Shown: positions 7,346 through 24,714 of the stretch, piece by piece
How the letters are laid out: the number at the start of each line of letters is the position of its first letter
How positions within the stretch are numbered: the first letter of the stretch is position 1
Source: Clostridia bacterium
GTDB lineage: Bacteria; Bacillota; Clostridia; Oscillospirales; CAG-272
Length of the DNA: 55,173 nucleotides
NCBI GenBank assembly: GCA_017547755.1
Contig: JAFYOX010000053.1
Location: 1-55,173 of the forward strand
Reading direction: 5' to 3'
Translations under genes and position numbers: made by a program
Notes under the pieces: generated by a model
Seen by the model: the letters and a program-made list of their open reading frames with translations, nothing else
What the model was told of the DNA's origin: nothing
Databases searched by the model: none

Positions 7346-7349
7346 GTTA

Positions 7350-8735: not shown

Positions 8736-8785
8736 TTGCCTGTCCCTCTGACGTATGACCGCCAGAGATATACTCCTTTCCGATG

Positions 8786-9409
8786 TTATCCCGAATTTCT
8801 TCCGGTTTCCCGCGGATCCGCCAGATGCAGCCGGATATCATTGCTGATCCTGACATCCTGATTGTAATTCAGTCCCGTCCCGGCGGCAGGAATTTTCTGT
8901 GCCCGGGTGTAGATCACGGGATCCGTTGTGCTCTTCCGGACAAAGAAAAGTTTTTCTATCACCGGTCCAATCTTTTTTTCCGTGCGGTCGATGCGTGCGA
9001 TCCAGCGGTCCATCCGCAGAAACAGCCGGGCAAGCCGCTGTACGGAAGGTTTTTCGAATCGCTCCGCATTCTTTTCCTTCCAGACGGAATAGAACTCCGT
9101 CCATTCCGTCCGGAGGCTGGCGTTCCGGTATGGTCGGATGTGATATCTGCCGTCCGCATCGTCATACCACAGGATTGCGTGGATTCTGGACACGGAGAGA
9201 TCCCTGTCGCCGAGATAAAAGTCACATTTGCGCTTTCTTCTTCCAATGATATAGTGGGAAGACGTTAGATGGTATTTTTCCGACTGCAGGATCAGATCCG
9301 TACAGAACTTTTTGCGGTAATACCGTCTGCGCTGTCTGTCCTCGGAATGCAGCGTCGTCAGAGCCAGAAGAATGGCCGCTGCCGCCATAAGAATTGCCGC
9401 AGTATACAT
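8786..9409 (-). CDS. membrane-anchored FHA domain protein
   Basis: The product has about 207 residues. An N-terminal hydrophobic segment (about 2-18) is followed by an FHA domain with the core pattern IIGRRKRKCDFYL...DLSVSRIHAIL (GR, then SRxHA). FHA domains bind phosphothreonine, so this protein probably links the operon's kinase to the FtsW/RodA-PBP pair. The C-terminal half is basic and unrecognised. ATG at 9409 was chosen; a GTG at 9421 overlaps the preceding gene's stop and is an alternative, but its RBS would be too close. In mycobacteria FhaA/FhaB are encoded beside rodA-pbpA-pstP-pknB, an analogous arrangement. Confidence 0.75.
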   Translation of the reverse strand: MYTAAILMAAAAILLALTTLHSEDRQRRRYYRKKFCTDLILQSEKYHLTSSHYIIGRRKRKCDFYLGDRDLSVSRIHAILWYDDADGRYHIRPYRNASLRTEWTEFYSVWKEKNAERFEKPSVQRLARLFLRMDRWIARIDRTEKKIGPVIEKLFFVRKSTTDPVIYTRAQKIPAAGTGLNYNQDVRISNDIRLHLADPRETGRNSG

Positions 9410-9417
9410 ATATCTGA

Positions 9418-10926
9418 TCACCCTCTCTGATCATTTTGTCTGCCGCAGAGAAATTCCGGTTTGTTTTTTCTCTTTTTGAACATTCCGGTCAGCTGGCGGA
9501 AACAATCCCCGGCACAAAAACTCACAACCGCCGTAAGCAGTATATGCAAGACATAAAGGAAGACGTCCAGATCAAGTTGAAAATTCAAAATCTGACCGAT
9601 ACCGTCATAATAACCGAGAATCGCCTGCTTCATCAGAAAAACAAATGTGCAGGGAACGATCAAAGTCAGCACACAGATCCCGGCAAGAACCGTGAAAATT
9701 CCGGAAACCGTTTTTCCGGCGCTCTTCCGTCTCTCATCGGATGCCGTTTTCTGATCTGCCGCGATCATCTCCTTCAGACGTTCTCTGCGTTCGTCCGATC
9801 CGTCGAAGTCCTCGCTTCCGGAGCAGTCAGCGGACATTTTCTGCTGCTTCCGCTGGTTTCGTTTCCGCTGACGCAGAAACTCGGAGGTCTGCGGGAATTT
9901 TCGGATATTCTTCAGGCAGTACTTCACCGTCCCGGCTTCCCATTCCGGCGAAAATATCTTATGCTGAAGACAATGCAGTACCCGTTCATCCCCCATTACA
10001 TCCAGAAACCGTACGATGCTTTCCGCTTCATCGGGCAGCCAAAGAGTCTCAAGAATCTCATGGTATGTCTCCCACGAACCGATCTCACCGATCAGCTTCA
10101 TGATTTCCTGATCATCTTCCTCGTTCTTTCTCGAAAGAAGTTCTGCCTTCCGGCGGATTTCATCGTCCGCGTTCCAGACTGCTTTCTGTTCGGAACAGTA
10201 ATAACTCTTCTTTGCCGGCATTCCGCCGCCGAATCCGCCCGCACGGATGTTTTCAAAGCGGTCGGCATTGGAGAAATTCAGCCCGATATTCTGCGAATCG
10301 GCAGCATTCTCCACACCGGTATGGAAAGAGACGGTTTTTCTGAGCGATGCGGGAAGGTGTGAAAACAGCCAGTCAAGGCAGCATTCCGGATTCATTCCGG
10401 AAATAAAGATCTGGTTTTTCATCGGCGGCTCCTGCTGCGCACAGAGAGCACCCGCATACAGAAAAATCTGCAGTTCCTCACCAATGTTTTTCACCGCAGA
10501 GAACGTACTATCGCCGTCCGCCATGAATTTTTCAAAGATCTTCTTCTGGTCTTCCCGATCCGCGGGAAGCTTGTTTTCTACGATCAATCTGGAATACTCC
10601 CGGAAGCCTTTCGCTCTGCGGCGGAAAAGATTATCTCTGAACATCATATCTGCCTCTCTGGTATTCAGGATAAAATGAACCGCACTGACGGAAGCCCGGT
10701 GATCCTCCGCACGGATCATATTGCGATAAATCACACTCAGGATGTAGTCACCGCCGCCAAGCGGTCCGTAACGCAGTGCAGGCTCTGCACTTCCCGTTTT
10801 CTGAAAAACCGTCATGGAAGAACAGATATCTGTAATTGCCTTCCGGTATTTTTCGATCGGGAAATCCTTTGAGGAACCATAAAACCCGTAACCGTTCTCA
10901 CGGTTTCCGTATTCAATCCATAACAT
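9418..10926 (-). CDS. GTPase-associated protein 1 (GAP1)-like membrane protein
   Basis: The product has 502 residues. The N-terminal half has the pattern YGxxxxGYGFYGSS, a later GPLGGGDYILSVIYRN and an EDHRASVSAVHFIL stretch, which resemble what I remember of the GAP1 N-terminal domains found next to small GTPases in bacterial conflict systems. The middle is helical and charged. Two hydrophobic segments (about 415-440 and 455-480) place the C-terminus in the membrane. The adjacent upstream gene is a P-loop GTPase, which supports the assignment. There is no enzyme motif. The start is the first ATG; its ribosome binding site is weak, and the 90-bp gap upstream can fold into a small hairpin around a GGTAC/GTACC pair. 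Function is inferred only. Confidence 0.5.
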   Translation of the reverse strand: MLWIEYGNRENGYGFYGSSKDFPIEKYRKAITDICSSMTVFQKTGSAEPALRYGPLGGGDYILSVIYRNMIRAEDHRASVSAVHFILNTREADMMFRDNLFRRRAKGFREYSRLIVENKLPADREDQKKIFEKFMADGDSTFSAVKNIGEELQIFLYAGALCAQQEPPMKNQIFISGMNPECCLDWLFSHLPASLRKTVSFHTGVENAADSQNIGLNFSNADRFENIRAGGFGGGMPAKKSYYCSEQKAVWNADDEIRRKAELLSRKNEEDDQEIMKLIGEIGSWETYHEILETLWLPDEAESIVRFLDVMGDERVLHCLQHKIFSPEWEAGTVKYCLKNIRKFPQTSEFLRQRKRNQRKQQKMSADCSGSEDFDGSDERRERLKEMIAADQKTASDERRKSAGKTVSGIFTVLAGICVLTLIVPCTFVFLMKQAILGYYDGIGQILNFQLDLDVFLYVLHILLTAVVSFCAGDCFRQLTGMFKKRKNKPEFLCGRQNDQRG

Positions 10927-11016
10927 ACTGCAATTGCGTTCTCACGGTACCTCTCCGCTTCGGGAAGTACCGCTTCCCGCTTCCTTTCTGTAATGTATTC
11001 TATGTATTTTCCATGT

Positions 11017-12144
11017 TTACTGCGCTTTTTCTCTGCCGATCTTCAGAAAACCCAGTTCCGCAAGGATCCAGAGCAGAGGATCCATAATATTGACAGCCGT
11101 ATCATACACCGAGCGCTGCGCGGCATCCGGATTCTGCGCTTCGGAACGACAGGTCTGGATAAAGAAGCCTGCGCGGTGCTGCGGCTTTTCCGCAATGCGC
11201 GCTCCTGCCTCCAGACGATAATTGCTGACGATCATATTTTCGAGTGCCATTCTGGGAAGAAATTCTTCGGGGAAATAATCGCTTTTTTTCTTCTGGGGAT
11301 GGAATGTTGTTTTATCGAACAGCGGTATGCTGCTTCCGCGATAACTGATTTTTTTATCCATCACTTTGTCCATACATGTGATCACATGGCACAGACTTTT
11401 TATTCCGTCCAGATACTGAAGTTTCTTCAAACCGTTATAAAGGGATACAACTTCGCCTGTACCGCGGTCTGCCGCATCTACAACAAGGAGAACATCGGCA
11501 TGCTCCAGAAAAATTCCGCGTTCGCTTTCCGTGATCTTTCCTTCGAAAAGTTCCCCTGCAAGGTCGACAATAAGGAGCGAAGCAATCTTCTTATGATTTC
11601 CGGTAAGGTCAAAAAGTGTCGTGGAACCTGTCTCGCTGCGGTTGGTCGTTTTCACATCCGTCGTTTCGCCGATGGAATCCGCTGGAACGATGCGCAGTCC
11701 CGGAGCAAGTACCGTTAATGCTTCGTTCAGCGGAAGGAGATTCCCCGGATAACGGACAGCATTCACAAAGGTGGTTTTTCCGACTCCGCGAGCGCCCGCC
11801 AGAGCAACTACATAGGTAGGGAATTCTCCCTGACCGGGATACAGGTAATTGGTTTTTCCATTGCGGCAGCAATGAGGGCAGATCCGGAGAAATACCAGCT
11901 CTTCGCCGCTGTTCTCCTGTACCGCATGGATTTTCACAGGCAGATCCTGTCCTGCCTTCCCTCTCCGGGTCTTTCTGTCGATCCGGAACAGGCTTTTTTT
12001 ATCCGCACCCATTCCTGCAAGGTAACATTTTCCGAATACATCTCTTTTCAAAACGGTATGGATGTTTTTGTCCGAATTATAGTAATTCACCTCTTCCGAA
12101 ATTTTACCGCAGAAATGACATAAGCATTCGCCTGTTTTCAGCAT
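11017..12144 (-). CDS. zinc-ribbon P-loop GTPase
   Basis: This 375-residue protein begins with a probable zinc ribbon made of CHFC (C9, C12) and CPHC (C89, C92). It then has a P-loop NTPase domain with Walker A GARGVGKTT (117-125), a switch-like TGSTTLFDL, Walker B/G3 IVDLAGE (D194) and TCMDK (256-260), which may be a degenerate T/NKxD base-specificity motif. This fits the TRAFAC-type GTPases that accompany GAP1-like proteins. A hydrophobic-rich C-terminus ends near MDPLLWILAELGFL. The next gene downstream encodes the GAP1-like membrane protein, and the gap to the upstream membrane gene is 4 bp. Guanine specificity is inferred. Confidence 0.65.
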   Translation of the reverse strand: MLKTGECLCHFCGKISEEVNYYNSDKNIHTVLKRDVFGKCYLAGMGADKKSLFRIDRKTRRGKAGQDLPVKIHAVQENSGEELVFLRICPHCCRNGKTNYLYPGQGEFPTYVVALAGARGVGKTTFVNAVRYPGNLLPLNEALTVLAPGLRIVPADSIGETTDVKTTNRSETGSTTLFDLTGNHKKIASLLIVDLAGELFEGKITESERGIFLEHADVLLVVDAADRGTGEVVSLYNGLKKLQYLDGIKSLCHVITCMDKVMDKKISYRGSSIPLFDKTTFHPQKKKSDYFPEEFLPRMALENMIVSNYRLEAGARIAEKPQHRAGFFIQTCRSEAQNPDAAQRSVYDTAVNIMDPLLWILAELGFLKIGREKAQ

Positions 12145-12147
12145 ATT

Positions 12148-13140
12148 TCATCTCTCCTTTCCGGCTGCAGAACCCTCTGCGGTCCCGCAGATCCATGTAA
12201 CTGCGTAGTTGGGGATATCGTCCTGAGGATTTCTGAGCTCCCTGATGTTCTTTACAAGAAGCAGAGGAACATTCTTTTCCAGAGGATGGTACAAGTATTT
12301 TCCGTCTTCGCTGACCACAATGAACGCACGATCGTCCTTATAACAAAACTTTATGCAGTCCTCTCCCTCCTCGTTGATGTCTGCCGGAATTTCAATGACA
12401 TTTCTTGCATTCCAGGAACAGATGCTTTCGTTTTTTCGATCCTGCTGGTCGTGCGGACCAAGCTTCTGCACACGAAGATATCCGCCGTCCGGGAACTCCA
12501 TTGCCGTTCCGGCTATTTTCTTCCGGAAAATGCAGAGAGAAAGATTGCGCCAGACTCTTATCGGCAGAGGAAGGAGCGTTGTGAAACTGATCCGCGGCAT
12601 CCGTACCGCCGTCTTCGGTGTACGGCGTTTTTTTACGTTACGCTTCCCGGTGTTCCGGAAAGTTTCCGTGTTATTCCCATCGTCCCTGCTGGCTGCGGGT
12701 ACGGGAACAGCTTTGGGTCTGGGAGGCCTCATCTTATGCTTCAGTCTCAGGATTTCCGCATACCGGAAGATAAGCCGGATGTACGGTATCGTGAGAAGGA
12801 GCGTTATAATGTACGGAGTTTCCGGCCGTCCGGCGGCCAGATTCACCAGTTCCAGAAAGCGCTGATATCCCTCCCGGATGTCATATCCGTTTTCATCCAG
12901 TTTCTGCAGAAGCAGATCCGTCAGCATACGGAAAAGATCCGCCAGAAGCGTATGGATCGCTTGAAAAACTTCATATAACGGCGGAAAAAAGGAGAGAAAA
13001 CCGGGAAAAAGAATCAGCAGAACCATGCTCTCGATTATCGTAAAAATCAAAAGACGATTTTTGCTGCCGATCTTCTTTTTCAGCCGCTTATTCAGGGTCA
13101 AAGAATTGTTCACAGGATTTGCCGAAGCTGCCGCATTCAT
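12148..13140 (-). CDS. two-helix membrane protein of unknown function
   Basis: I do not recognise this 330-residue protein. It has a hydrophobic segment at about 30-55 (FTIIESMVLLILFPGFL), a second at about 108-130 (ITLLLTIPYIRLIF), a basic, proline-rich linker (140-200) and a soluble C-terminal domain of about 120 residues, apparently beta-rich, with hydrophobic strands such as AFIVVSEDGKYLYHP. The position, 4 bp from the GTPase and 25 bp from the kinase, suggests that it recruits or senses for one of them at the membrane. Confidence 0.55.
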   Translation of the reverse strand: MNAAASANPVNNSLTLNKRLKKKIGSKNRLLIFTIIESMVLLILFPGFLSFFPPLYEVFQAIHTLLADLFRMLTDLLLQKLDENGYDIREGYQRFLELVNLAAGRPETPYIITLLLTIPYIRLIFRYAEILRLKHKMRPPRPKAVPVPAASRDDGNNTETFRNTGKRNVKKRRTPKTAVRMPRISFTTLLPLPIRVWRNLSLCIFRKKIAGTAMEFPDGGYLRVQKLGPHDQQDRKNESICSWNARNVIEIPADINEEGEDCIKFCYKDDRAFIVVSEDGKYLYHPLEKNVPLLLVKNIRELRNPQDDIPNYAVTWICGTAEGSAAGKER

Positions 13141-13165
13141 ATCATTCCCGTCCTTTCAAAATAAT

Positions 13166-14863
13166 CTATTCCTTGTGGATCACCACATAGTGGATGCTGC
13201 CGTCCGCACTGCGGAAAAAGATGTCCTGTGTACGCCGCTTTTCCGGCGTCATGTTTCTCCCCAAAGCATCCTTTTTGTTTTTCACGGATGCCGGTATGGT
13301 TCCGATCTCCGGTACATCTTCGGAAGGCTTCCGTGAGGCAGACTGCACTTTATGAAACGGACGGCATTCCGTATACCACCGGCTTCCCGTGTCGTTCCGG
13401 ACATCGCCGTCGCAGTACACGATCAGCCGGAACTGACTGCCGAGGAGATCTGCGTAATACCGGATCGGTCTGCCGTTGACTGTCAGAAATTTTCCTGCAT
13501 TCATATCTGCAGAAGCGAAAATATGAATCTGACCGCTGAAATACCGGAAATCCTGCGGATCCTTTTCGCGGTCACGGATCATCTTGTAAAGACTTGCCGT
13601 AACTCCGGAACAGGAACCCTTCGGATACGCCGGAAGTTCCTTCCGCAGTCCGTCGGACACATCCTGTTCCGAAAGATAATCCTCTGCATTTCCGATTCTG
13701 CCCATCCCGGAGCATACCTCCGACCAGTTTGTACGGGTGTCCGCGTCGTTCCTGTTCACGTCGTGGTAAACATAAACCATATGACGGGTATTCTCCGATG
13801 CAAAAACGGAATATTCCTTCATCGCCTTCAGATACTTCGCACGATTTCCGGCAAGCCCGGTCAGATCCAGCAGAATAACATCCGAAAGCATGGACTGCAA
13901 ATTTATCAAAACTTTTTTCAGTTCCATGAGAGAAATACGACCGTCCGGTCTGCAGGCGATACACCGGCGGAACACCCGCACCAGTTCCTCGGGAAACTCC
14001 TCCCCGGAAAGCGTCAGTTTTCCGGCAAGTTCGCGTTCAAGCCATGAAGGCACCGCAGTGTCATCGGCGTATTTTTCCCACAGCGCCTCATATGTCTTCC
14101 GGATCGCGCCTCGCGGAATCTTCGCAAACCAGCAGCACATCGGATTCATCGTTTCTCCGTTTTCATCGCGGAACAGTCCGAACAGTTCCGCAAGAAGCAT
14201 TCCGAGTGCAAACACATCTGCCTTCGCGGAAGGCTTCATTTCCAGAATATATTCCGGAGGAGTATTTGAGAAAGACATTGCATTCAGGTCCGTACCGTCG
14301 CTGTCAGGGGACTCCTCTGCGGCTTTCGAACTGGCAAAATCGATGATTTTGACACAGAACGATGTTCCCTTCCGTTCCAGCATGAGGTTGCCGAGCTTCA
14401 GATCACGGTGTGCAACGATGTAACCGTTTTTCCCGGTATTCAACTCTTCCAGACCGGCAATCGTCTGCAGCAGGATCTCGAGTTTATCCCCGAAAGTAAG
14501 TACAGCAGGTTCGATCGTCTGATACAGCGGTTCAATGATCATACACGTCAGCGGCTGATTTGTTTTGGAGCCGGAAAGAAGGAGACGGGTATTGTCATCC
14601 TTCAGAAGGATCCGGCGAAGATGTTCCCCTTCATAGGAGATCAGGTCCATATATTCCCGGTTCTGAGGGGTACGTTCGTGCAGCATGCTCTCCGTAACGT
14701 CGTACTGCTTCAGACAATAGCGGGTTCCGGGCAAAAGATTCCCGGGAGCTTCTTCACGAAATCTTCCGGAGTATACATACTTTCCGGTACTTCTTGAGGA
14801 AATTTTTTCTTCCACGAAAAACGGATATTTTTCCGCCTCATATGTAAAGAAAATATTCTGCAT
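13166..14863 (-). CDS. Ser/Thr protein kinase with unidentified C-terminal domain
   Basis: This 565-residue protein has a Hanks-type kinase domain at about 1-340: CLKQYD with lysine K52, HRDLKLGN (catalytic D154, N159), then DFA (D175) where most kinases have DFG, PPE (202-204) for APE, and KADVFALG in the F helix. The catalytic residues are present, so it is probably active. There is no membrane segment or PASTA repeat, unlike PrkC/PknB. The C-terminal 220 residues begin with LLDLTGLAG and contain GSCSGVTASLYKMI, which could be a degenerate von Willebrand A-type fold, but this is unsure. The PP2C gene lies 25 bp upstream and would be the opposing phosphatase. Confidence 0.75.
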   Translation of the reverse strand: MQNIFFTYEAEKYPFFVEEKISSRSTGKYVYSGRFREEAPGNLLPGTRYCLKQYDVTESMLHERTPQNREYMDLISYEGEHLRRILLKDDNTRLLLSGSKTNQPLTCMIIEPLYQTIEPAVLTFGDKLEILLQTIAGLEELNTGKNGYIVAHRDLKLGNLMLERKGTSFCVKIIDFASSKAAEESPDSDGTDLNAMSFSNTPPEYILEMKPSAKADVFALGMLLAELFGLFRDENGETMNPMCCWFAKIPRGAIRKTYEALWEKYADDTAVPSWLERELAGKLTLSGEEFPEELVRVFRRCIACRPDGRISLMELKKVLINLQSMLSDVILLDLTGLAGNRAKYLKAMKEYSVFASENTRHMVYVYHDVNRNDADTRTNWSEVCSGMGRIGNAEDYLSEQDVSDGLRKELPAYPKGSCSGVTASLYKMIRDREKDPQDFRYFSGQIHIFASADMNAGKFLTVNGRPIRYYADLLGSQFRLIVYCDGDVRNDTGSRWYTECRPFHKVQSASRKPSEDVPEIGTIPASVKNKKDALGRNMTPEKRRTQDIFFRSADGSIHYVVIHKE

Positions 14864-14888
14864 TTCGAACTCCTTTCAAGTCTTCCCG

Positions 14889-15674
14889 TCAGCTGAGCTG
14901 AATACGGGTCGCCATAATTGTAAAATTATCTGTGGAGGAACTGTTCTCAACTTCGTCGAGAATACGCTGACAAAGTCCTGCCATATGGTCCGCATTCCCG
15001 CAGACGATCTCCCGCAGAATATCTTCTCCAAATACGGAAAGCGCGCCGTCGCTTCCGAGAAGAAGAACACAGTCCTGAGAGAGCGTTACGTGATCTGTAA
15101 AAATCTCTTCTTCGCGGAGAGGTGTGGTTCTTCCCAGAGCAAGAACCAATTTGTTTTTCAGCGGAGATGATAAGGCTTCTTCCCGGCTCAGGAGTCCTTC
15201 CCGGACGGCATATCCGGCCGCGTTGTGATTTTCATAAAGTCCGGTAAGCACCCCCTGCTTAAAATCAATGAGGTAGACCGGCGAATCTCCTACATTACAA
15301 ACGAACAGCCGGTCTCTGAAAACAACGGCGCAGCTGAGGGTCGCGGCGCACCTGTTTTTCCGAAGCATACTGTCCGCTTCCATCACTGCCTGGCAAAGCG
15401 TTCTGCGGATGTAATAATCCAAATACTCTTCCTCTGCTTCCGCCAGATCGTAAAGACTTCCCAGCAGAGGAAGAAGGCCGTTGTAGAAACTCCGGACGGC
15501 AAGCTCTGCGGCGAGCTTGCCGTTTGCTTTCGATACTCCATCCACCACGCACTGAATGCTCATCCGCTGAGGTGCCGTAGGCGCGGGATCGACCAGCACA
15601 TGCAGACATTTATCCTCATTTTCACTCTTACGATGCCGGACAGAACATTCCCGGAAATCCTTGATGTAAAACAT
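14889..15674 (-). CDS. PP2C-family protein phosphatase
   Basis: The 261-residue product shows the PPM/PP2C motifs in order: ENED (18-21), VVDG (D45), VGDSPVYL (128-135), LGSDG (D209) and STDNFT (D249). The metal-binding acidic residues are kept, so it should dephosphorylate phosphoserine/threonine with Mn or Mg. The usual DGMGG loop is replaced by DGVSKANGK, an uncommon change next to the metal centre. Start at 15674 follows GGAAGGTGAG; a start nine codons up would lie in this RBS. It lies between the pseudokinase and kinase genes in one operon, so it likely reverses that kinase on the FHA ligands and on cell-wall or GTPase targets. Confidence 0.8.
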   Translation of the reverse strand: MFYIKDFRECSVRHRKSENEDKCLHVLVDPAPTAPQRMSIQCVVDGVSKANGKLAAELAVRSFYNGLLPLLGSLYDLAEAEEEYLDYYIRRTLCQAVMEADSMLRKNRCAATLSCAVVFRDRLFVCNVGDSPVYLIDFKQGVLTGLYENHNAAGYAVREGLLSREEALSSPLKNKLVLALGRTTPLREEEIFTDHVTLSQDCVLLLGSDGALSVFGEDILREIVCGNADHMAGLCQRILDEVENSSSTDNFTIMATRIQLS

Positions 15675-15697
15675 GCTCTCACCTTCCTTTCCCTGTG

Positions 15698-16780
15698 TCA
15701 AACTTCCGTGGCATCGGTCTGAGAGGAAGATTCTTTTCCGAAAATCCCCTTCAGCTTTTCCAAAACATCTTCTCTGGGAAAGGAGAGAAACGGCAGCTTC
15801 CAGGCTTCACTGCCGGTCTCCGTATCATCGCTGATCGGCTCGGAAGGGGCTGCAGCCTTCTTTTTCACGGAGATCTTTTTCTCCGGAACCGTCCGGGAAT
15901 CGATGCCGAGTTCACGGAAAATCGCACCGCTTCTTACCTCTTCCAGAGTCGGACGCATTTTCTGGAAAGGATTGATCGCCCGAAGAAGATATGTATTTTC
16001 TTCATTCGGAAGATTTTCGACGTCCTTCATTTCGGAACCTCCGTTCAGAAGAATCAGATAAATGCAGGCTGCCGCATAGAGGTCGGTCGTGAAATCCGCA
16101 TCGGGTCCGCCCGCTTCCGGAGGATACAGTTCCGAGAATGCTTCATTCAGTGCGGGGATCGGAAGAATGCGGATGGAAACATTTCCGCCGCAGAAACGGA
16201 CATACACGGTGTCCAGACTCAGGCAGCATAAAGCTCCGAAAAAGGGGCTGCTTCTCCTGACCTGCATCTTTTTTACCAACGGTGAATAGTTCGTCAGGAC
16301 ATTCTGCCACTGTCCTTCCTGAATAAAGAGGAGCAGTTCCCGAAAAACGATCGGTGCGATCTTTTTCTTTACATCGGCCGGAAGCTCACGCAGGGAACGT
16401 TCTTCGTCCCACAAATAAAAGGAATACAGCGTGTAGCCGTCCTTCTCGGAATAGGGAGCGCTGCCGGGGATAAATGTTGTATCCGGCACATGAAGAACTG
16501 CAGAAAAATGTTTCTGCAGAGCAGACTGCAGCGGAACACTGCAGTCTTTCACCGCCCAGACAACGGTGCCGGGATCGGCGGTGATCAGTTTTCCTCCGCA
16601 GCATGCACCTGCACAGGTGATATCTCCGAGAAAAACATCGGAGGAACGTGAAAAATCCGGAATGCGTTCATTCTCATTTTTCACTTCTGCATCGGGAGAG
16701 ATGTCGTTGATGCGGAATCTGGAATCCCTGCGATTTGCGGGGGACTGTGTTCTCTCATCCATATTTTCACGATTGCTCAT
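15698..16780 (-). CDS. probable pseudokinase, first gene of the nine-gene operon
   Basis: The 360-residue protein has an acidic, disordered N-terminus and C-terminus around a region that keeps the back half of a protein kinase. YPPEAGG resembles the APE motif, DFTTDLYAAACIYLILLNGG resembles the F-helix DxxxxG region, and FQKMRPTLEEV resembles the RPT motif at the end of the domain. No lysine strand, HRD or DFG motif was found, so it should not phosphorylate and may act as an allosteric partner or scaffold for the active kinase two genes on. The low overall similarity makes this an inference. A promoter with the shared 16-bp motif lies directly upstream. Confidence 0.55.
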   Translation of the reverse strand: MSNRENMDERTQSPANRRDSRFRINDISPDAEVKNENERIPDFSRSSDVFLGDITCAGACCGGKLITADPGTVVWAVKDCSVPLQSALQKHFSAVLHVPDTTFIPGSAPYSEKDGYTLYSFYLWDEERSLRELPADVKKKIAPIVFRELLLFIQEGQWQNVLTNYSPLVKKMQVRRSSPFFGALCCLSLDTVYVRFCGGNVSIRILPIPALNEAFSELYPPEAGGPDADFTTDLYAAACIYLILLNGGSEMKDVENLPNEENTYLLRAINPFQKMRPTLEEVRSGAIFRELGIDSRTVPEKKISVKKKAAAPSEPISDDTETGSEAWKLPFLSFPREDVLEKLKGIFGKESSSQTDATEV

Positions 16781-17041: not shown

Positions 17042-17584
17042 ATGAAAAAAGCTGTAAAGAATCAGGGAAAAATCGTCCATGCCTATCGTCTCGGCGATGC
17101 ATCCGAAACCGAACTCCGCCTGCTCAGGGAAGGACTTATCCGTATCCGCGAAGACAAAACCTATGAACTCTTCTCCCTCGAAGCAGTCAGCGGCTCCGGA
17201 GAAATCGCACGGAAAGGCGACTATTTCAAGCTCAGCGCAGACGGCCGCCCTTACCCGAACGCCAAGGATTTCTTTGAAGCCAACCACCGTTTTCTGGACG
17301 GCGATCGTTATGAACAGTATCCAAAGCCGCTGGAAGTCTGGTGTGCCGAAGACGGTCTCTGTCCCGAAATCCGGTTTCTGCAGGAACACAAAGGACTTGT
17401 GCTCGATCCGTCCGGAGGTGAAAAATATTTTTCCGCACCTCTGTGGGGAACCGTTCTTTCCGCCGCCGCGGACGCCGTGATCGTTTTCTACAGCATCACA
17501 AGAAACGATGACGGCACGATTGCCGACGCGGATTTCAATTTTGTTTCGCGTGAGGAATTCGACCGTACCTATTCGCGGCTGTAA
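17042..17584 (+). CDS. small conserved-looking protein, PGDYG-like
   Basis: The product has 180 residues, is soluble and has no signal peptide. The sequence around residues 50-95 (ARKGDYFKL...GRPYPNAKDFF...YEQYPKP) looks like proteins with a KGDY/PGDYG-type core that I recall as an uncharacterised domain; I cannot name a reaction. ATG follows GAAAGGAC. It forms its own unit but has the same promoter motif as the Hsp70, SprT-like and kinase operons, so it should belong to the same response. Base usage is like its neighbours. Confidence 0.55.
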   Translation: MKKAVKNQGKIVHAYRLGDASETELRLLREGLIRIREDKTYELFSLEAVSGSGEIARKGDYFKLSADGRPYPNAKDFFEANHRFLDGDRYEQYPKPLEVWCAEDGLCPEIRFLQEHKGLVLDPSGGEKYFSAPLWGTVLSAAADAVIVFYSITRNDDGTIADADFNFVSREEFDRTYSRL

Positions 17585-17665: not shown

Positions 17666-17698
17666 TCACCCATAGATACCCAAGGGAGGATGTTCGTC

Positions 17699-19243
17699 AT
17701 GGCACAGTCTCTGCGTGATATAATAAAAACAAACCTCGATGTTCCGGTCCGGAACATTTTTGACACCAATTACAGCAGCGATGCTCTCATCAATGCCGCT
17801 GCCGCACAATACGCCAAATTCGAGGGAAAAGATATCTCTAAATTTGTTCCGGCACGAAAAACAGAAAAACTCTGGGAATGGTATTCCGGCCGGTATCCGT
17901 CTGCGAAAGCCGAAACTTCCGCGGACAGGGCAAACAGCCGGAACGTCAGCCGGACAACTTCGGAAGACACCTATGATTTTCATATTCCATACAAAGCGGA
18001 ATCGTTCAAACGCAATCTTCTCGGCACAACGTTTCCGAGTTCGGAATTTATCCAGCATATCTGTGCCGCCTTCTTTATCGGCCGCGAAACCTGCAATCAA
18101 CTTCTGACCACCTACGGATACCTTCCCCTCCACGAGAAAAATCTCCATAATCTGGCTGTCTACTCCGTTTTGTCAAACATCGATACCCTGGGCGGCAATC
18201 CGCTGGAGCTGATCCGGAACCGGTATTTCAAGGCGCGGGAAATTCTGATAGAGATCTGCGGCAATGATCCGATCGTTATGCAGACGATTGAGACGCTGCT
18301 GCTCGCCGAAGAACTGGGGGCCCGGCCGGATTTCACGGAAGAGCACTATCTGAACTATGTACGAAAAAACGCCGTCTATCTGACCCGCAGACACAGCGCG
18401 CTTCTGAAAGAACACAGCCGGCTGGTAAATGTCTTTCAGGATCTGTACGACATCCGCAGGAAAATGCCTCTGAATACCCGATGGTCCGAAACGGAAGGTG
18501 TGTACAGTCTGTTCTCCTTTGTCACGCTCTTCTGTCTGAACCTTCAATATAATAATTTCAAGGACCGCCTGATCAAGGAGATCCGTAAAGACGGCGAAGT
18601 CATGGAACGTGCAAACCGTCATCCTACCAGAGAAATCATGATCCTGCTGTGGCTGTATGAGGAATTTTTCCGCAACAGTCCGCCGATCCTGTGTCCGCCG
18701 AAATATGCCTCCGTTTTTCCGAAAGAATACCGCACAGTGCGTACGATCTCTCCGGACGAAACAAAAACCGAACTGGATATCCACCGGCTTCTCTTCGGAA
18801 CCGCACCTTCCCGCGGAAGCAGAAAAATACGCTACAACAGAAATCCGTATACCGCGAACGTGCATTTTGACGGTCCCGAAGCGCATCGCCTGATCAACGA
18901 AAAACTGAAAAACTACGGCTACAACCCGCTCACTCTCAACTGCAAATTTGACCTGCTGATCATGAAATTTTTCTCGCTGAAAATTTATCAGTTCTGGGAC
19001 AGCGGTACCGCGGAATATTCCTGCGATTTTTTTGAAGAACAGCAAATCCTGCTGAGAGATGATCCGGATTTTTCCGATGCTGTCTTCGCGTATGAAGAAT
19101 ATCGTGTTCCGCTCGCACTCTCCATGTTCTTCAAAATCCTCGGTTATGCCCGGAAGATGGGAGAATCGCTCTCCGGAGAAAAAAATCCAAAGAAGCATCC
19201 GCGGGAATTTCTGCTTGAATGCCGATTGAACAGCCAGATCTGA
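17699..19243 (+). CDS. unknown protein with HTH-like segment, partner of the kinase-CARF protein
   Basis: The product has 514 residues. I do not recognise the family as a whole. After a low-complexity Ser/Arg-rich stretch (about 75-95), a segment at about 120-160 (FIGRETCNQLLTTYGYLPL then an N-LAVYSVL helix) has the pattern of helix-turn-helix-like domains of XRE-type proteins, in which a 'LL..aGY.PL' stretch follows the helices. The rest is predicted all-helical with many charged residues. The start at 17699 has GGGAGGA eight bases before it; the ATG nine bases up overlaps that site. The next gene starts 14 bp after this stop, so both form one operon, and this protein could be a regulator, adaptor or substrate of the kinase-CARF protein. 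Confidence 0.55.
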   Translation: MAQSLRDIIKTNLDVPVRNIFDTNYSSDALINAAAAQYAKFEGKDISKFVPARKTEKLWEWYSGRYPSAKAETSADRANSRNVSRTTSEDTYDFHIPYKAESFKRNLLGTTFPSSEFIQHICAAFFIGRETCNQLLTTYGYLPLHEKNLHNLAVYSVLSNIDTLGGNPLELIRNRYFKAREILIEICGNDPIVMQTIETLLLAEELGARPDFTEEHYLNYVRKNAVYLTRRHSALLKEHSRLVNVFQDLYDIRRKMPLNTRWSETEGVYSLFSFVTLFCLNLQYNNFKDRLIKEIRKDGEVMERANRHPTREIMILLWLYEEFFRNSPPILCPPKYASVFPKEYRTVRTISPDETKTELDIHRLLFGTAPSRGSRKIRYNRNPYTANVHFDGPEAHRLINEKLKNYGYNPLTLNCKFDLLIMKFFSLKIYQFWDSGTAEYSCDFFEEQQILLRDDPDFSDAVFAYEEYRVPLALSMFFKILGYARKMGESLSGEKNPKKHPREFLLECRLNSQI

Positions 19244-19257
19244 AAGGTGGTTATCCT

Positions 19258-22200
19258 ATGTATTTTGATAACAATGACCTGCGAACTCCATTAAAAAACG
19301 GTACTTCCGTTGTTCTTGCCGATGAGAAAAAGAAGATCCGCACCGAATATATTATCGATTCTCTCGCAGGCTCCGGCGGTTTTGCAATGATGTACATTGC
19401 CCACGAAAAAAATAACCCTCAGCACTTTACGGCACTGAAGGAACTCTACCCGCGCACTCTGAACAACGCCATCGCGGAACGCCTGGAAAACGATAAAATT
19501 GTGATCTACAATCCCCTGACAGAATCGGATGAACAGGACAATCCGGAAATCTGGGAACAGATCGAACCGTATTTCGAACGGGAAGTACGGCTGACACGCC
19601 GCGCAGCCGCCGTATACGATTCCAACGGCAGAGTTCTTCCGCAGAACAATCCCGATATTTTTGGAATTCAGGGCCCCTATACGGCGGAAAACGGGAACCG
19701 CTACATCGTCATCGATACCCGCAGCGGAAAATCTATGCAGCAGTTTATTGACAACGGATGGGAAAGTACGGCGGACAAAGGAAAATTCCGGAACAATCTT
19801 CTGGGAGAAGTTCTTGAAATTCTCCGGAAAGTCACACAGAGACTGACGTTCCTGCACGGAGACCACCGGATGTATCATCTTGACCTTTCTCCTGCCAATA
19901 TTTATGTCAGTTATATCAACGGCGGTCTGGACGTGGATCCCATCATCATTGACTACGGCAGTGCCTACGACCGGAACGATCCGCAGGAGTCCGCCGCGCA
20001 CCGTTTCACCTGCAACCCCTATTCCGCACCGGAAATCACTGCGCTTGCCGAACTGAACGATCTGAATGCCGGATACACGATCGATGTGACTTCGGATACC
20101 TACAATCTCGCCGCGATCCTCTTTTACGCGGTTTTCGGCGAAGTATACACCATCGATAAAATTTACGATACTTCCTGGAAGCAGCAGCTTTATACCCTGT
20201 ATCCGGATAATGTATATGAGAATTTTGCGGAGCAGCTGAACGATTTCTTTGACAAGGGACTTTCCTCCGATCAGCGGGAACGTTATGTCACCATACAGCC
20301 CTATTTCGAACGGAAACAGAATTCCCTGTTCGATGCACTGACCGAACTTCAGGAAAAATACAAACAGAAAGAGGCTGATATTCTCAGCAGAATGCCGCCG
20401 GATGAACTGATGTCCTATCTGCTTCTGGACAAGTATCCGCTGTACCGGTACTGCAGCAATGACGGCGATCTCCATGTTCTCTGTCTCGGAAGCGGCTCCT
20501 TTGTCACAAGCATGATCCGTTCCATCCTCGGCACCGGACAGATGATCGGCAGAAAACTGTATATTCACGTCGTTTCCGGCAATGCGGCTTCCTATCGTGA
20601 CCATCTGCTTTCCAAAGCCCCGCTGCTTGAAAACTATGCGGACTTCGGCGACGGATCTCCCGTACCGGAGAACGTATATGTTTCCTTTTCCTTTGAAACC
20701 GTATCGGATTTTGCAGACGAGGAAACCTGCCGCAGGATCGCAGAAAAATACGGCGAAAAAAGCCGCTATGTGATCATTTCGCTCGGTGCGAACAACAGCA
20801 ATATCACGCTCGCACGCCGTTTTGCCGGTGAAATCGGGAATATTTCATCCGAAAACACCATTATTCATTACTATATGGCAGAGGATTCGGCACAGAATAT
20901 CCGTGCGGATCTTGACACTTCCGCAATCCCACCGCATGTGACGATCCAGCCGTTCGGAAACCGTCTTTCCTCCTTCAGCAAAGACGTACACAAGCTGGGC
21001 AGAAAAGCCTTCCGTCTCCATTATCTGTATGAAAAAATATACAATTCCAGTGCGGCAAAAAGTCAGGCGCTGAAAAAATTCCTTGCCGATGATTACAGCC
21101 AGCGCTCCTCTGCTGCCGCCGCAGTCCATATTGACTATAAGCTCGCCAGCCTCGGCATCTCCGTCGCCGAACCGAAAAGCACACAGCGTTCAGCGGCTTC
21201 CCGGCAGTCCAGGATCATCGAACAATACCGCCGCTGCCTGCGGGATCCCGTACAGTACGGAAAACTCCTGCAGCTGGAACACACGCGGTGGATGTTCTTT
21301 ATGATCGCCGACGGATATCGTCTTCCGAGTGCGCAGGATCATGAACGCTACAGTTTCAAAACGGTCAGCAAAGTCTTCAACAAAGCTTTCAAATGTACGG
21401 ATAAAAGCATAAAACTGCACCATTGTCTGGTTCCCTGCAGTGCAAACGGGATCTGTCTGCCGCAGGATCACGGAGAATGGAACAGGTATACCTGCAAAAA
21501 TGAAATCGATGCGTCCGATTACGATGCTCTGGACAAAATGTCTCTTTATGTCCATATGCTCGCCGGCGAACGCATCCGACGATCTTCCACCGGCGTCCGT
21601 ATCCTCAGCCTCGTCGAAAACGACCTCAGGGAAATGCTGTATATCGCGCCTGAAAACGAATCGCTGAAGAAAGAATTCGAATCCTTCCTTGAATGGATCC
21701 GTCAGGTTCTGAAGGGCACTTCCCCGAAGGAACAGAAAGCAAGATTCATCCGTCTGCAGGAACAGTTTTCGCTGAATGAGATTGATATCACAGACATCGC
21801 AAAAAAAATTTCCGACGAACTGGCTGTGTTCGCGGAATATCATTCCTACAAGGATTATAAGGAACCCGACAAAGCGATCATCGATCACCTGCTGTGGGTA
21901 AAGTTTGCCGAAGACTTTGTAATGCTCAAAGCCAAAACCCCGTCGGTTCTCTCCGATATTGCCGCTCCGCTGGTCATCGAGCCGCGGAAGCTGATATATC
22001 TCGGAACAGAACCGCAGGAAACGCTGACCTCCTTTTTCAGAAATCACGGAAACAACACCGACGTATCTTATGAAAAATGTTCCTTTGAACGGCTGGATAC
22101 GGTTACGGATACACTGTCCCGCCTGATCCGCGCCGCTTCCGGTCAGACGTGCATCATCGATGTCACCGATGCACATCCGCTTTTCACTGCAGCGGCTGTC

Positions 22201-23436
22201 ATGCTTGCTTCGAAAGACAAGAAAATCGGGGTGATTTCCTGCGATACAACGGATTTTTCCATTATCAATATTATGAATTACCCCTGTGCGGCAATCCATC
22301 GCCTGAACACCTCCGTTTCCGCAGGTGAAATCTTCGGGCTGTACGGCGCGCAGGAAAAATCGGGTACGGAAAACTATATGTACCGTCTCGGCAGCGATAT
22401 GGATAATCTCTGGGACTTCTACCGGAAATACCGCACCGACTGGGAAATGATCTCCGCCTTTTTCATGGAATATGCCAAAGGCTCTTCCGAGGTCCATGTT
22501 TCCGGATTCCCGGTTCCGGCGAATCCGGAGATTCCATGGAAAACTTACCGTCGTTCCGGTTCCTCCGAATTATATCGTATCACGGGAATCGAGGAAATTC
22601 TCGGCAGACTGCAGGATGTCGGCCTGATCCGGAAGCTTGTTCTGCAGGAAACGGAAGCATACAGCAATCTTTCCTTTGAATATCCGGTCGGGAACGAAGC
22701 CGCATCCGGCTGTCTTATAACGCAGCTCGACGATCTTCTGACCAATCTTGGAAATCTGAAGCTGAAATACAGGATCACGCCGAAATCCGCCGGGGTATAT
22801 GATATTGATATTGCAAGCGGTGTTCAGGTATCGCGGCATTTCAAAACCGATACGTTCCGAAATATCTGCGGCAAAAAGGAATTCCGGCTCCGGAACATGG
22901 AGGATCCTCTCAGGGAACTGGAAAAACTCGGAATCATCTCTTCCCTTACGTTCGATCATGCGGACGTCTCCTGTTTTGTCAGCTTTATTTACAGCAGCCG
23001 TGCTGTCCGGGACTGTCTGACCACCGCCGGAAATATTCTGGAGGCATACGTCTGGCATACGGCGGAAAGAACCGGGTATTTTGACAGTCTGCAGGCAAAC
23101 TTCTCCTTCCGGTGGCATGATTCTTCCGTCAGCAACGAGCTGGACATCATCCTTACCAAAGGGCTGACCACCCTGGTGTGTTCCTGCAAAACCGCCGGAC
23201 TCTGCAGAGAGCATCTGTATGAGATCTCGGATCTGACCCGCCGGTTCTCCGTGAACAGCAAGCCGGTGATCATTTACTCCTCGGATAAAGCGATGGAAAA
23301 CGGCAAAACTTCGGACACCACCGACGCCGTCCGGGAACGCGCACGCGAAATGGGCATTTATCTGATCGACCGCGATATCCTTGACGGAAATCTCGGAGAA
23401 GAACTGCGCCGGATTGCCGAAGAACGCCCGGAATAA
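19258..23436 (+). CDS. kinase-Rossmann-RyR-CARF-nuclease fusion protein
   Basis: The product has 1392 residues. A kinase domain (about 25-330) has GSGGF (38-42), K61 in ALKELYP, HLDLSPAN (D209, N214; HLD not HRD), DYG (D232) and APE (257-259). A Rossmann-like domain (about 405-580) has LGSGSF (410-415) and SLGANN. A RyR-like segment has LEHTRW with GY nearby (674-687). The C-terminal 490 residues match DUF1887/Card1 proteins: a CARF-like Rossmann fold (about 910-1000, IIDVTDAH), a winged-helix-like part, then a PD-(D/E)XK-like nuclease with LEAYVW (E1262), NELD (D1296) and CSCKT (K1311). The Glu of the family's ECK is Ser1309. Start has AAGGTGG upstream. The domain order is read from motifs; a nucleotide-triggered effector role is inferred. 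Confidence 0.7.
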   Translation: MYFDNNDLRTPLKNGTSVVLADEKKKIRTEYIIDSLAGSGGFAMMYIAHEKNNPQHFTALKELYPRTLNNAIAERLENDKIVIYNPLTESDEQDNPEIWEQIEPYFEREVRLTRRAAAVYDSNGRVLPQNNPDIFGIQGPYTAENGNRYIVIDTRSGKSMQQFIDNGWESTADKGKFRNNLLGEVLEILRKVTQRLTFLHGDHRMYHLDLSPANIYVSYINGGLDVDPIIIDYGSAYDRNDPQESAAHRFTCNPYSAPEITALAELNDLNAGYTIDVTSDTYNLAAILFYAVFGEVYTIDKIYDTSWKQQLYTLYPDNVYENFAEQLNDFFDKGLSSDQRERYVTIQPYFERKQNSLFDALTELQEKYKQKEADILSRMPPDELMSYLLLDKYPLYRYCSNDGDLHVLCLGSGSFVTSMIRSILGTGQMIGRKLYIHVVSGNAASYRDHLLSKAPLLENYADFGDGSPVPENVYVSFSFETVSDFADEETCRRIAEKYGEKSRYVIISLGANNSNITLARRFAGEIGNISSENTIIHYYMAEDSAQNIRADLDTSAIPPHVTIQPFGNRLSSFSKDVHKLGRKAFRLHYLYEKIYNSSAAKSQALKKFLADDYSQRSSAAAAVHIDYKLASLGISVAEPKSTQRSAASRQSRIIEQYRRCLRDPVQYGKLLQLEHTRWMFFMIADGYRLPSAQDHERYSFKTVSKVFNKAFKCTDKSIKLHHCLVPCSANGICLPQDHGEWNRYTCKNEIDASDYDALDKMSLYVHMLAGERIRRSSTGVRILSLVENDLREMLYIAPENESLKKEFESFLEWIRQVLKGTSPKEQKARFIRLQEQFSLNEIDITDIAKKISDELAVFAEYHSYKDYKEPDKAIIDHLLWVKFAEDFVMLKAKTPSVLSDIAAPLVIEPRKLIYLGTEPQETLTSFFRNHGNNTDVSYEKCSFERLDTVTDTLSRLIRAASGQTCIIDVTDAHPLFTAAAVMLASKDKKIGVISCDTTDFSIINIMNYPCAAIHRLNTSVSAGEIFGLYGAQEKSGTENYMYRLGSDMDNLWDFYRKYRTDWEMISAFFMEYAKGSSEVHVSGFPVPANPEIPWKTYRRSGSSELYRITGIEEILGRLQDVGLIRKLVLQETEAYSNLSFEYPVGNEAASGCLITQLDDLLTNLGNLKLKYRITPKSAGVYDIDIASGVQVSRHFKTDTFRNICGKKEFRLRNMEDPLRELEKLGIISSLTFDHADVSCFVSFIYSSRAVRDCLTTAGNILEAYVWHTAERTGYFDSLQANFSFRWHDSSVSNELDIILTKGLTTLVCSCKTAGLCREHLYEISDLTRRFSVNSKPVIIYSSDKAMENGKTSDTTDAVRERAREMGIYLIDRDILDGNLGEELRRIAEERPE

Positions 23437-23488: not shown

Positions 23489-24714
23489 TTACGCGTTGTG
23501 GTTCTTCTTCTTGCCGAAGAGGTTCAGTACGCAGAGACCGAGAACTGCTGCTGCGCTGCTGATGTACCAGAACATGGAGTCGCCGGTCAGCGGAACGGGT
23601 TCGTCCGGGATGTTGGTCAGCGGGATTTCTTCGTCAGGAATGTTGACGAGCGGGATTTCTTCGTCGGGAATTTCTACGATTTCCGGTTCTTCTTCAACCT
23701 TCAGCTTGAAGGTGAACTTTCTCTTGGTGGGTTCTTCCGGCTTGGGTTCGGGATCCTTGGGTTCCTTGGGTTCTTCGGTGGGTTCTTCCGGATCTTCCGT
23801 CGGATCTTCGGGATCTTCGGTGGGATCTTCGGGATCGATTTCCGGGTCGATTTCTTCGTACCAGTGACGTTCCGCTACTACATGGTTGTCTTCGTCCACG
23901 ACGAAGATCGAAGGTGAAATCGGAATTTTCACTGAGATGAAGACCGGTCAGAGTGTACACACCGTTTACCGCGGTAATGGTTTCCGCATTTCTTTCTTCG
24001 GTGTTTTCCCCTGCAAGACGACGGGTAACGACAACTTCTTCACCATTCTGCATGTAAGTGATGTGTACCAGCAGGTCGTCAGATTCCGGATCGGGTACAA
24101 ATTCCAGAGTAAAATTCAGTTCTGCTTCGTAAACATCGTTGTCTGCGTTGTCATTATAGTTTGCTTCAAAACCATCTGCCTTATCGCCGATCGTAAGGCT
24201 CAGATTATCGATATTGTTCTTTTCGTTGATAACGATCGTGGATTCCTGCTTTTCATTAAGATTAATCAGATATTCGTAAAGTGCTCTTGTTCTTGCCGCA
24301 CCGGCATAATCATTCTTACCGTTGAGGGAATCGCCGAGCGCGCTGCTTCCATAATAGACATCCCCGACAATCATACGGTCGGTACCGTCCAGGGCATGGT
24401 TAGAACCGTTTGCGTAGGACCAGATCGCCATCTGCGTAGCGTCGAATGCTTCGCCTTCGGTCAGAGCGTCGATTACTTCATCTGTCAGAACGCGGAGTCG
24501 TAATTTCTATCACAGATGAAGTAATCGCAGAAGTAACATCCGTTACTTCTGCGGTCACGGTCGTGGTGATCTCCGTCTTGGTTCCGTCTTCGTTTTCTGC
24601 GATTTCCGTTTCACTTCCGGAAACAACTTCTTCTGCGAACGTCGGAAGGGTTGCGCCTGCAAACATATTGGCTGCGAGAAGCAGAACAAGCAGTTTCTTA
24701 AGATTGTTTTTCAT
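23489..24714 (-). pseudogene. broken thioester (TQXA) surface protein with cell-wall sorting signal
   Basis: Three frames together give one surface protein. Part 1 (24714-24478) starts with a signal peptide (KKLLVLLLAANMFAGATL) and stops after about 78 codons. Part 2, in another frame, continues with LTDEVIDALTEG and FDATQMAIWSY, the Gln half of a TQXA thioester domain, then a beta-type domain. A second frame change near 23900 leads to part 3, with an acidic Pro/Glu repeat (PTEDPEDPTEDPE), PDEEIPLTNIPDE repeats, VPLTGDS as sorting motif, a membrane helix and KKK. The expected thioester Cys and about 60-80 residues before LTDE are missing. This suggests a deletion at the inverted repeat (24470-24527) or an assembly fault. 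A TATAAT (24782-24777, minus) lies upstream. Confidence 0.75.
24470..24527. repeat. perfect 16-bp inverted repeat at the break of the surface-protein gene
   Basis: CGATTACTTCATCTGT (24470-24485) and its exact complement ACAGATGAAGTAATCG (24512-24527) flank 26 bp. The first frame break of the surface protein and its missing thioester half fall here. Confidence 0.85.

What the first reader, a model, noticed from the sequence alone, without database searches (positions are those of the whole stretch)
19258..23436. Single protein joining Ser/Thr kinase, Rossmann domain, RyR-like segment and CARF-nuclease
The kinase motifs, LGSGSF, LEHTRW and the LEAYVW/NELD/CSCKT signature occur in one 1392-residue frame. 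Card1/Can2-like (DUF1887) effectors are normally reported as CARF-wHTH-nuclease, and CARF proteins usually depend on CRISPR type III cyclic oligoadenylates. Here there is no CRISPR array or Cas gene in 55 kb, and a kinase and a possible nucleotide-binding Rossmann domain are fused in front. This could be a CRISPR-independent, phospho-controlled nucleotide-sensing effector. Individual domains are known; the combination may be new.
Basis: partly seen in the sequence, partly recalled or inferred. Interest (0 to 1): 0.88.

Follow-up and report, generated by a model that had tools for sequence, protein, structure and literature searches.

The report
Kinase, RyR sensor and nuclease fused
A bacterium carries one giant protein that joins a protein kinase, a domain related to a piece of the animal ryanodine receptor, and a nuclease module known from CRISPR immunity, apparently without CRISPR, which suggests an unknown kind of bacterial defence switch.

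Summary
The fusion is real. One 1392-residue frame (19258-23436, +) holds a Ser/Thr kinase with intact motifs, an RCK/TrkA-type Rossmann domain, a RyR (ryanodine-receptor repeat) domain, and a complete Can2/Card1-type CARF, doubled winged helix and PD-(D/E)XK nuclease. A 43%-identical full-length relative lies in another family of the same order, beside relatives of the same two neighbours (a 517-aa helical partner and a 180-aa protein): a rare three-gene module. Cas10 was found in neither genome; SMODS cyclase in 0 of 21 genomes with Card1-like modules. The window copy's CARF lost the GG kept by all 16 other aligned sequences. The RyR part keeps an H-x-x-W pair that, in phage RyDEP, binds TIR-made cyclic ADP-ribose. 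In 29 genomes with the RCK-RyR module, a TIR gene lies within 5 kb in 7 (0.58 expected), the relative included but not the window copy. Best reading: a CRISPR-independent, defence-type nuclease, gated by a nucleotide seen by RyR (perhaps a TIR product) and set by the kinase. Architecture near certain; ligand, role and activation inferred. New variant of a known kind.

The parts
17042..17584 (+). 180-aa protein of unknown family; first gene of the shared module in the window (downstream of the fusion in the relative)
   Evidence: 51% identical to L022:9379-10014:- beside the relative; its profile matches in 2 of 196 genomes searched (own included), the two with the fusion; two further copies elsewhere in the own genome; no Pfam, PADLOC or NCBIfam hit at E 0.1
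17690..19243 (+). 517-aa helical partner protein, directly upstream of the fusion (14 bp gap)
   Evidence: 27% identical to L022:14268-15926:- directly upstream of the relative; 2 of 196 genomes; perhaps a divergent member of a ~400-aa family encoded near kinases (weak)
19258..23436 (+). the fusion protein, 1392 aa
19258..20352 (+). Ser/Thr protein kinase, residues ~1-365; K61, D209 (HLD), D232 (DYG), APE at 257-259
20461..21003 (+). RCK/TrkA-N-type Rossmann domain, residues ~402-582
   Evidence: AlphaFold2 model and VIA-align: CASTOR, DMI1, TM1088A, TrkA, MthK
21079..21567 (+). RyR (ryanodine-receptor repeat) domain region, residues ~608-770; H675 and W678, probably H721, match ligand residues of RyDEP
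   Evidence: PMC13232231 section 4; limits approximate, this part was not covered by the fold matches
21907..22284 (+). CARF domain, residues ~884-1009, with DVTDA where relatives have D-x-x-G-G
22543..22725 (+). winged-helix copy 1, residues ~1096-1156
   Evidence: internal repeat with copy 2, 0 of 2000 shuffles as good
22852..23028 (+). winged-helix copy 2, residues ~1199-1257
23026..23400 (+). PD-(D/E)XK nuclease of the Can2/Card1 (DUF1887) type, residues ~1257-1381; E1262, E1294, D1296, K1311

Best explanation
A CRISPR-independent, defence-type suicide or dormancy nuclease. The Can2/Card1 module at the C-terminus is held off until the middle RCK-RyR module binds a nucleotide signal, most likely an ADP-ribose-type molecule such as those that TIR proteins make. 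The conformational change passes through the CARF dimer and the doubled winged helix to open the nuclease, as cA4 does in Can2. The N-terminal kinase, with the 517-aa helical partner as sensor or adaptor, sets or licenses the switch by phosphorylating the partner, the 180-aa protein or the fusion itself. Shown here: the architecture, intact kinase and nuclease motifs, the shared three-gene module, conserved RyR residues, no Cas10 match. Inferred: that it is defence, the ligand, the direction of control, the kinase substrate.
For: Catalytic motifs intact in both copies at 43% identity. Whole Can2/Card1 fold, nearest VC1899, an orphan CARF protein not associated with type III CRISPR. RyR profile match, with the H-x-x-W pair and a following H invariant in 22 of 22 aligned RCK-RyR sequences; RyDEP uses H75, W78 and H100 to hold 3'cADPR. 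The RCK-RyR module is in 29 of 295 genomes of the order, and 31 of 32 proteins read look membrane-anchored. A TIR gene lies within 5 kb of it in 7 of 29 genomes against 0.58 expected, among them a TIR-kinase gene 766 bp from the relative. A Card1-like gene stands close to RyR genes in two genomes of one genus (one checked). No Cas10 and no SMODS in the two carriers.
Against: No TIR gene near the window copy: the four TIR matches of its genome lie on other contigs. TIR and RyR genes may merely share defence islands, which was not controlled for, and 22 of 29 genomes have no TIR within 5 kb. RyDEP's own sequence was not in hand; H721 as H100 is inference, and 4 of 5 small stand-alone RyR proteins have T there. 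By eye, D117 falls on N742 in the window and D in the relative, but the automatic alignment chose another register. The RyR3 repeat also binds ATP-type ligands. The module sits beside cell-wall-type genes (FtsW, PBP, FHA), which would also fit a housekeeping role. No experimental data.
Confidence: 0.38

Rival explanations
1. The CARF is the true sensor: a cyclic oligoadenylate from a type III CRISPR system, or a CBASS-type product, turns the nuclease on, and kinase and RyR only tune it.
For: The C-terminal half is a complete Can2/Card1-type protein. The relative keeps DVTGGDE. At the places of Can2 S19 and T42 the window has T and T, the relative S and L.
Against: No Cas10 match in either genome (own genome 75% complete, the relative's estimated 100%). 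Among 21 genomes with Card1-like modules Cas10 is over the cut-off in 1 and matched at E 0.01 or better in 3; SMODS in 0 of 21. GG lost in the window copy; at K99 and Y118 of Can2 the window has P and S, the relative E and R (sequence alignment only).
Confidence: 0.15
2. Phospho-switch: the kinase and the helical partner sense infection or stress, and phosphorylation alone unleashes the nuclease; RCK-RyR and CARF are scaffolds or metabolic vetoes (for example an NAD or ATP level check).
For: Intact kinase motifs. The partner may belong to a family encoded near kinases, including a kinase-ATPase fusion in four genomes of the genus (weak link). RCK domains in channels bind NAD or ATP (recalled).
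Against: The RyR H, W and H are invariant in 22 of 22 sequences, which a mere scaffold would not need.
Confidence: 0.27
3. Not defence: a chromosomal regulator of envelope or redox stress working with the neighbouring kinase-PP2C-FHA-FtsW-PBP cluster.
For: That cluster lies divergently next to it.
Against: The relative lies in another setting, next to TraG/VirD4-like and ClpP-like genes (by reading) and TIR genes; the full-length fusion is in only 2 of 391 genomes of the class, unlike housekeeping genes.
Confidence: 0.12

Closest known systems
Can2/Card1 (DUF1887, CARF-nuclease) and VC1899
   Different: behind kinase, RCK and RyR domains; winged helix doubled (clear in the window copy, weaker in the relative); S for E before the C-K (SCKT, as in all 17 aligned sequences); GG of the CARF lost in the window copy; no Cas10 found
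Thoeris (TIR plus effector) and phage RyDEP (PMC13232231)
   Same: RyR domain with the H-x-x-W pair; TIR genes close to the relative and to some other RCK-RyR genes
   Different: no TIR near the window copy; effector is a kinase-bearing nuclease; RyDEP is a phage protein that removes or soaks up the signal, here RyR would be the receptor
RCK-gated channels (CASTOR, DMI1, MthK) and TrkA
   Different: soluble here, no transmembrane-like segment; followed by RyR
Defence kinases PD-T4-6, MAD6, PglW
   Same: kinase domain similarity; PglW couples a kinase to a nuclease-type domain (recalled)
   Different: far below the curated score of MADS6 (35.5 of 460 bits); other effector and sensor domains

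Membership tests
Can2/Card1 (DUF1887) | CARF, winged helix and PD-(D/E)XK fold in one chain | tested here: met
Can2/Card1 (DUF1887) | nuclease active-site residues | tested here: met
   E1262, E1294, D1296, K1311 invariant in 17 of 17; Can2 E276/D278
Can2/Card1 (DUF1887) | score over the Pfam cut-off PF09002 | tested here: not met
   19.5 of 26.4 bits for the whole window protein, 22.4 for its C-terminal part and 25.9 for the relative
Can2/Card1 as CRISPR effector | type III CRISPR (Cas10) in the genome | tested here: not met
   0 of 2 genomes; own genome only 75% complete, the relative's estimated 100%
Can2/Card1 as CRISPR effector | four cA4 contacts shared by Can1 and Can2 (S19, T42, K99, Y118) | tested here: inconclusive
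   T, T, P, S in the window; S, L, E, R in the relative, by sequence alignment only
RyR domain (PF02026) | profile match to RyR | tested here: inconclusive
   no Pfam RyR hit for residues 381-800 at E 1 or the whole protein at 0.1; 22-sequence profile to solved RyR 1.2e-9 (tandem) and 9.6e-5 (single); a related membrane protein hits PF02026 at 0.01, below cut-off
RyR domain (PF02026) | ligand residues H75, W78, H100, D117 of RyDEP | tested here: inconclusive
   H675 and W678 clear; H721 probable; D117 place uncertain
Protein kinase | VAIK lysine, HRD and DFG aspartates | tested here: met
   K61, D209, D232, the same in both copies
Thoeris | TIR gene next to the effector | tested here: not met
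   none within 10 kb of the window copy; 766 bp from the relative
Thoeris | effector activated by a cADPR-type signal | not testable with these tools
   needs biochemistry
CBASS | CD-NTase (SMODS) in the genome | tested here: not met
   0 of 21 genomes including both carriers; own genome 75% complete

The most novel reading that the evidence does not exclude
Bacterial RCK-RyR proteins are receptors for TIR-made cyclic ADP-ribose signals, forming an unrecognised TIR-RyR branch of nucleotide immunity whose usual effector is membrane-bound and channel-like; the window protein is its soluble form, in which the signal, licensed by a kinase, opens a CRISPR-type nuclease without CRISPR.
Probability: 0.3. 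Interest if true: 0.92.

Novelty: new variant of a known kind. Interest (0 to 1): 0.77.

Why it matters
It puts kinase signalling, an RCK-RyR nucleotide-sensor module and a Can2/Card1-type nuclease in one chain, linking fields that do not usually meet. If RyR is the receptor, it would give a bacterial RyR module a function, explain why phages encode RyR proteins that destroy or soak up cADPR, and bear on the open question of how cADPR acts on animal ryanodine receptors. It also shows a CRISPR effector module under a different input. All of this is testable with one purified protein and a handful of nucleotides.

Tried and rejected
Considered and dropped: assembly or frame artefact (43%-identical relative with the same domain order); cOA from CRISPR or CBASS as main input; phage gene (no hit in phages; PHROGs none for the fusion at E 0.001; viral contigs, searched with six peptide patterns, none confirmed).

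Led nowhere or weak: the plasmid search gave 3 records, all in the kinase part. The one genome-contig scan used two N-terminal peptide patterns only and returned only the relative's own contig, a weak negative. Alignment A8 mixed fragments of different domains and was misaligned; not used. hhalign of the 517-aa partner with the ~400-aa family gave only 0.9% and 3.8% probability. In one search the profile of the two long partners ranked L044 (12.6 bits) and L056 (5.9) above all 1050 shuffles, but the other five family members did not separate, and the reverse search put the partner at rank 8 and its relative at rank 30 of 616; so this homology is weak. The winged-helix repeat is strong in the window copy (0 of 2000) and weaker in the relative (37 of 2000, over 15 residues). 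phmmer with three TIR seeds missed the TIR of G260; the Pfam count was used. Fold matches of the middle model cover its residues 11-264 only, so the RyR part rests on sequence. The Poisson test ignores defence islands and contig ends.

Papers: the searches returned none and none; the listings (listed: 15 of 38, 5 of 5, 1 of 1, 12 of 28, 10 of 4907, 6 of 6, 2 of 2) showed no title describing this architecture or RyR as a TIR effector. PMC7016017 (passages) speaks of RyR only as animal channels. The library is open-licence only, and Makarova et al. 2020 on CARF classification is not held, so priority is not excluded.
Full report

The relative and the module. Searching 196 near genomes with the protein gave matches in 43, but full length only in the window's own genome and in G152; in 394 genomes of the order 6 match at 1e-15, again 2 in full length; in 391 genomes of the class 2 match the two-sequence profile at 1e-25. 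These sets overlap and include the own genome. G152 contig 12 has the same length and the same match as CANQFV010000012.1, an uncultured Oscillospiraceae MAG. The two proteins are 43% identical over their length. Both are preceded at 14 bp by a ~520-550-aa helical protein (27% identical), and both are next to a ~180-210-aa protein (51%), upstream in the window, downstream in G152. In the 196 genomes the profiles of these two proteins match in the same 2 genomes only; the 180-aa protein has two more copies in the window's genome, one next to an HSP70-like gene. The long partner may be a far relative of a ~400-aa family found in 7 of 196 genomes (G041 weakly). In the loci read, this family lies near kinase genes, partly judged by reading, among them a trio of partner, long kinase-bearing protein and lipoprotein-like gene in four genomes of the window's genus; an AAA/STAND-type ATPase part was tested in one of the four. 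The homology of the 517-aa protein with this family is weak.

The nuclease should work, the CARF may not bind cA4. E1262, E1294, D1296 and K1311 are invariant in 17 of 17 aligned sequences, and E1294/D1296 fall on Can2 E276/D278, which PMC7969007 names as active-site residues (passages seen). The same passages say that VC1899, the closest fold here, is an orphan outside type III CRISPR, with weak residual RNase activity not regulated by cA4. In the window copy the D-x-x-G-G motif of the CARF is DVTDA; the other 16 of 17 sequences, the G152 relative included, keep GG, 15 of them as D-x-[TS]-G-G. Of four cA4 contacts shared by Can1 and Can2 (S19, T42, K99, Y118), the window has T, T, P, S and the relative S, L, E, R, by sequence alignment only.

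No known source of cyclic oligoadenylate was found. Cas10 (PF22335) matched neither G000 (75% complete) nor G152 (estimated 100%). In 21 genomes carrying Card1-like modules it was over the cut-off in 1 and weaker in 2 more, so in these genomes Card1-like proteins mostly stand without a detectable Cas10; several are incomplete. SMODS (PF18144) matched 0 of 21. The window has no repeat array at the settings.

The RyR lead. PMC13232231 (preprint, May 2026; [quoted passage not shown] I did not have RyDEP's sequence; the H-x-x-W pair is H675/W678 here by spacing and by the RyR alignment. A further histidine, H721, lies where solved RyR repeats have H and is my candidate for H100; 4 of 5 small stand-alone RyR proteins have T there. 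E674, H675, R677, W678 and H721 are invariant in 22 of 22 aligned RCK-RyR sequences. By eye D117 falls on N742 in the window and D in the relative, but the alignment chose another register, so this is open. The RCK-RyR module was found in 29 of 295 genomes of the order. Of 32 such proteins of 300 residues or more in the loci held (those of G260 and G345 not among them), 31 have hydrophobic, membrane-like segments in the first 250 residues (L108 only at 215-233), the exception being the G152 fusion; the window fusion, checked apart, has none either. TIR_2 matches 105 places in 28 of the 29 genomes; in 7 genomes a TIR lies within 5 kb of a RyR-module gene, with 0.58 expected from TIR number and genome size (Poisson P about 2.6e-6; within 2 kb 5 against 0.28, P 1.2e-5; within 10 kb 7 against 1.06, P 1.2e-4). 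In five of them the genes are on one strand with gaps of 14-55 bp by the frames (G137 through a small RyR gene, G178, G193, G324, G378); G260 looks the same. In G152 a TIR-kinase gene lies 766 bp from the fusion, tail to tail, with the 180-aa-type gene between, and 4 of the 5 TIR matches of that genome lie on the same 66-kb contig. Small stand-alone RyR genes lie beside or near the RCK-RyR genes in six loci (one checked in Pfam, 5.5e-39; five aligned), and a Card1-like gene stands close to them in two genomes of one genus (one checked, 26.4 bits at a cut-off of 26.4). Against this: the window copy has no TIR nearby, 22 of 29 genomes have none within 5 kb, and clustering of defence genes in islands was not controlled for.

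How it most likely works. I propose that RCK-RyR is the nucleotide sensor, the Can2/Card1 half the effector, and the kinase with its helical partner a second key. In channels, RCK domains turn ligand binding into movement (recalled), and in Can2 ligand binding to the CARF dimer opens the nuclease cleft (PMC7969007 passages); a chain RyR-RCK-CARF-nuclease would use the same mechanics with a different input. The doubled winged helix (0 of 2000 shuffles in the window copy, 37 of 2000 in the relative) may carry the coupling. The defence role, the ligand, the order of events and the kinase substrate are inference. I put the architecture near certain, CRISPR independence at about 0.85, RyR as sensor of an ADP-ribose-type nucleotide at about 0.5, and the complete mechanism at 0.38.

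Novelty. The paper searches (listings only) showed no title that describes kinase, RCK, RyR and CARF-nuclease in one chain, or a RyR protein as a TIR-gated effector. In the 2025 CRISPR classification PMC12669027 the words kinase and RyR do not occur in the main text (passages seen); the type III effector survey PMC11229360 names no such fusion in the passages seen; the eLife 2020 conflict-systems paper PMC7159879 (passages) describes kinase and PP2C pairs in conflict systems and does not hold the word RyR. The library misses subscription journals and a key CARF paper. I file it as a new variant of a known kind: known domains, new order and, probably, new wiring.

Noticed in passing
L026:8851-14193, L092:9044-13003, L098:6567-9199, L109:8454-12886, L114:8143-10717: Same-strand, nearly touching genes of a TIR protein (LRR, TPR, beta-propeller-like or short forms) and a membrane RCK-RyR protein: candidate TIR-RyR systems in their own right. 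Three membrane RCK-RyR proteins tested have no PADLOC hit at E 0.01.
   Followed up: partly
L027:6553-11915, L044:1884-7299, L045:290-5802, L056:4045-9426: Four genomes of the window's genus share a trio: ~400-aa partner, kinase-bearing protein of ~970-1350 aa (AAA/STAND part tested in L027 only) and a lipoprotein-like gene (by eye).
   Followed up: partly
window 5978-16780, - strand: Cluster of PBP transpeptidase, FtsW/RodA, FHA, double-GTPase-like (below cut-off), kinase (13166-14863), PP2C (14889-15701) and a kinase-like but degenerate protein (15698-16780, by eye), divergent from the module; it resembles the mycobacterial pstP-rodA-pbpA-pkn layout (recalled).
   Followed up: partly
G000:C28:1-5217 (L039): A second copy of the 180-aa protein lies beside an HSP70-like gene; another HSP70-like gene is in the window at 2987-5161.
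   Followed up: partly
L048:9923-17001, L105:9787-18492: RCK-RyR genes beside a vWA-like protein (L048, below cut-off) and a long protein whose start looks tubulin/FtsZ-like (by eye): another conflict-system-like setting.
   Followed up: no
L023:12425-15943, L098:9244-12618, L093:4681-8097: Long proteins with similar N-termini beside RCK-RyR genes; the one tested (L098) has two AAA domains and an M41 (FtsH-type) peptidase.
   Followed up: partly
L002:1327-2751 (G000 contig 110): The window's genome has a second, stand-alone Card1-like protein of 474 aa that keeps the GG motif.
   Followed up: partly
window 23489-23932, - strand: Proline/glutamate-rich protein with an LPXTG-like anchor (30.6 bits, below the cut-off of 48) and a 30-bp imperfect tandem repeat, just downstream of the fusion on the other strand.
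   Followed up: no
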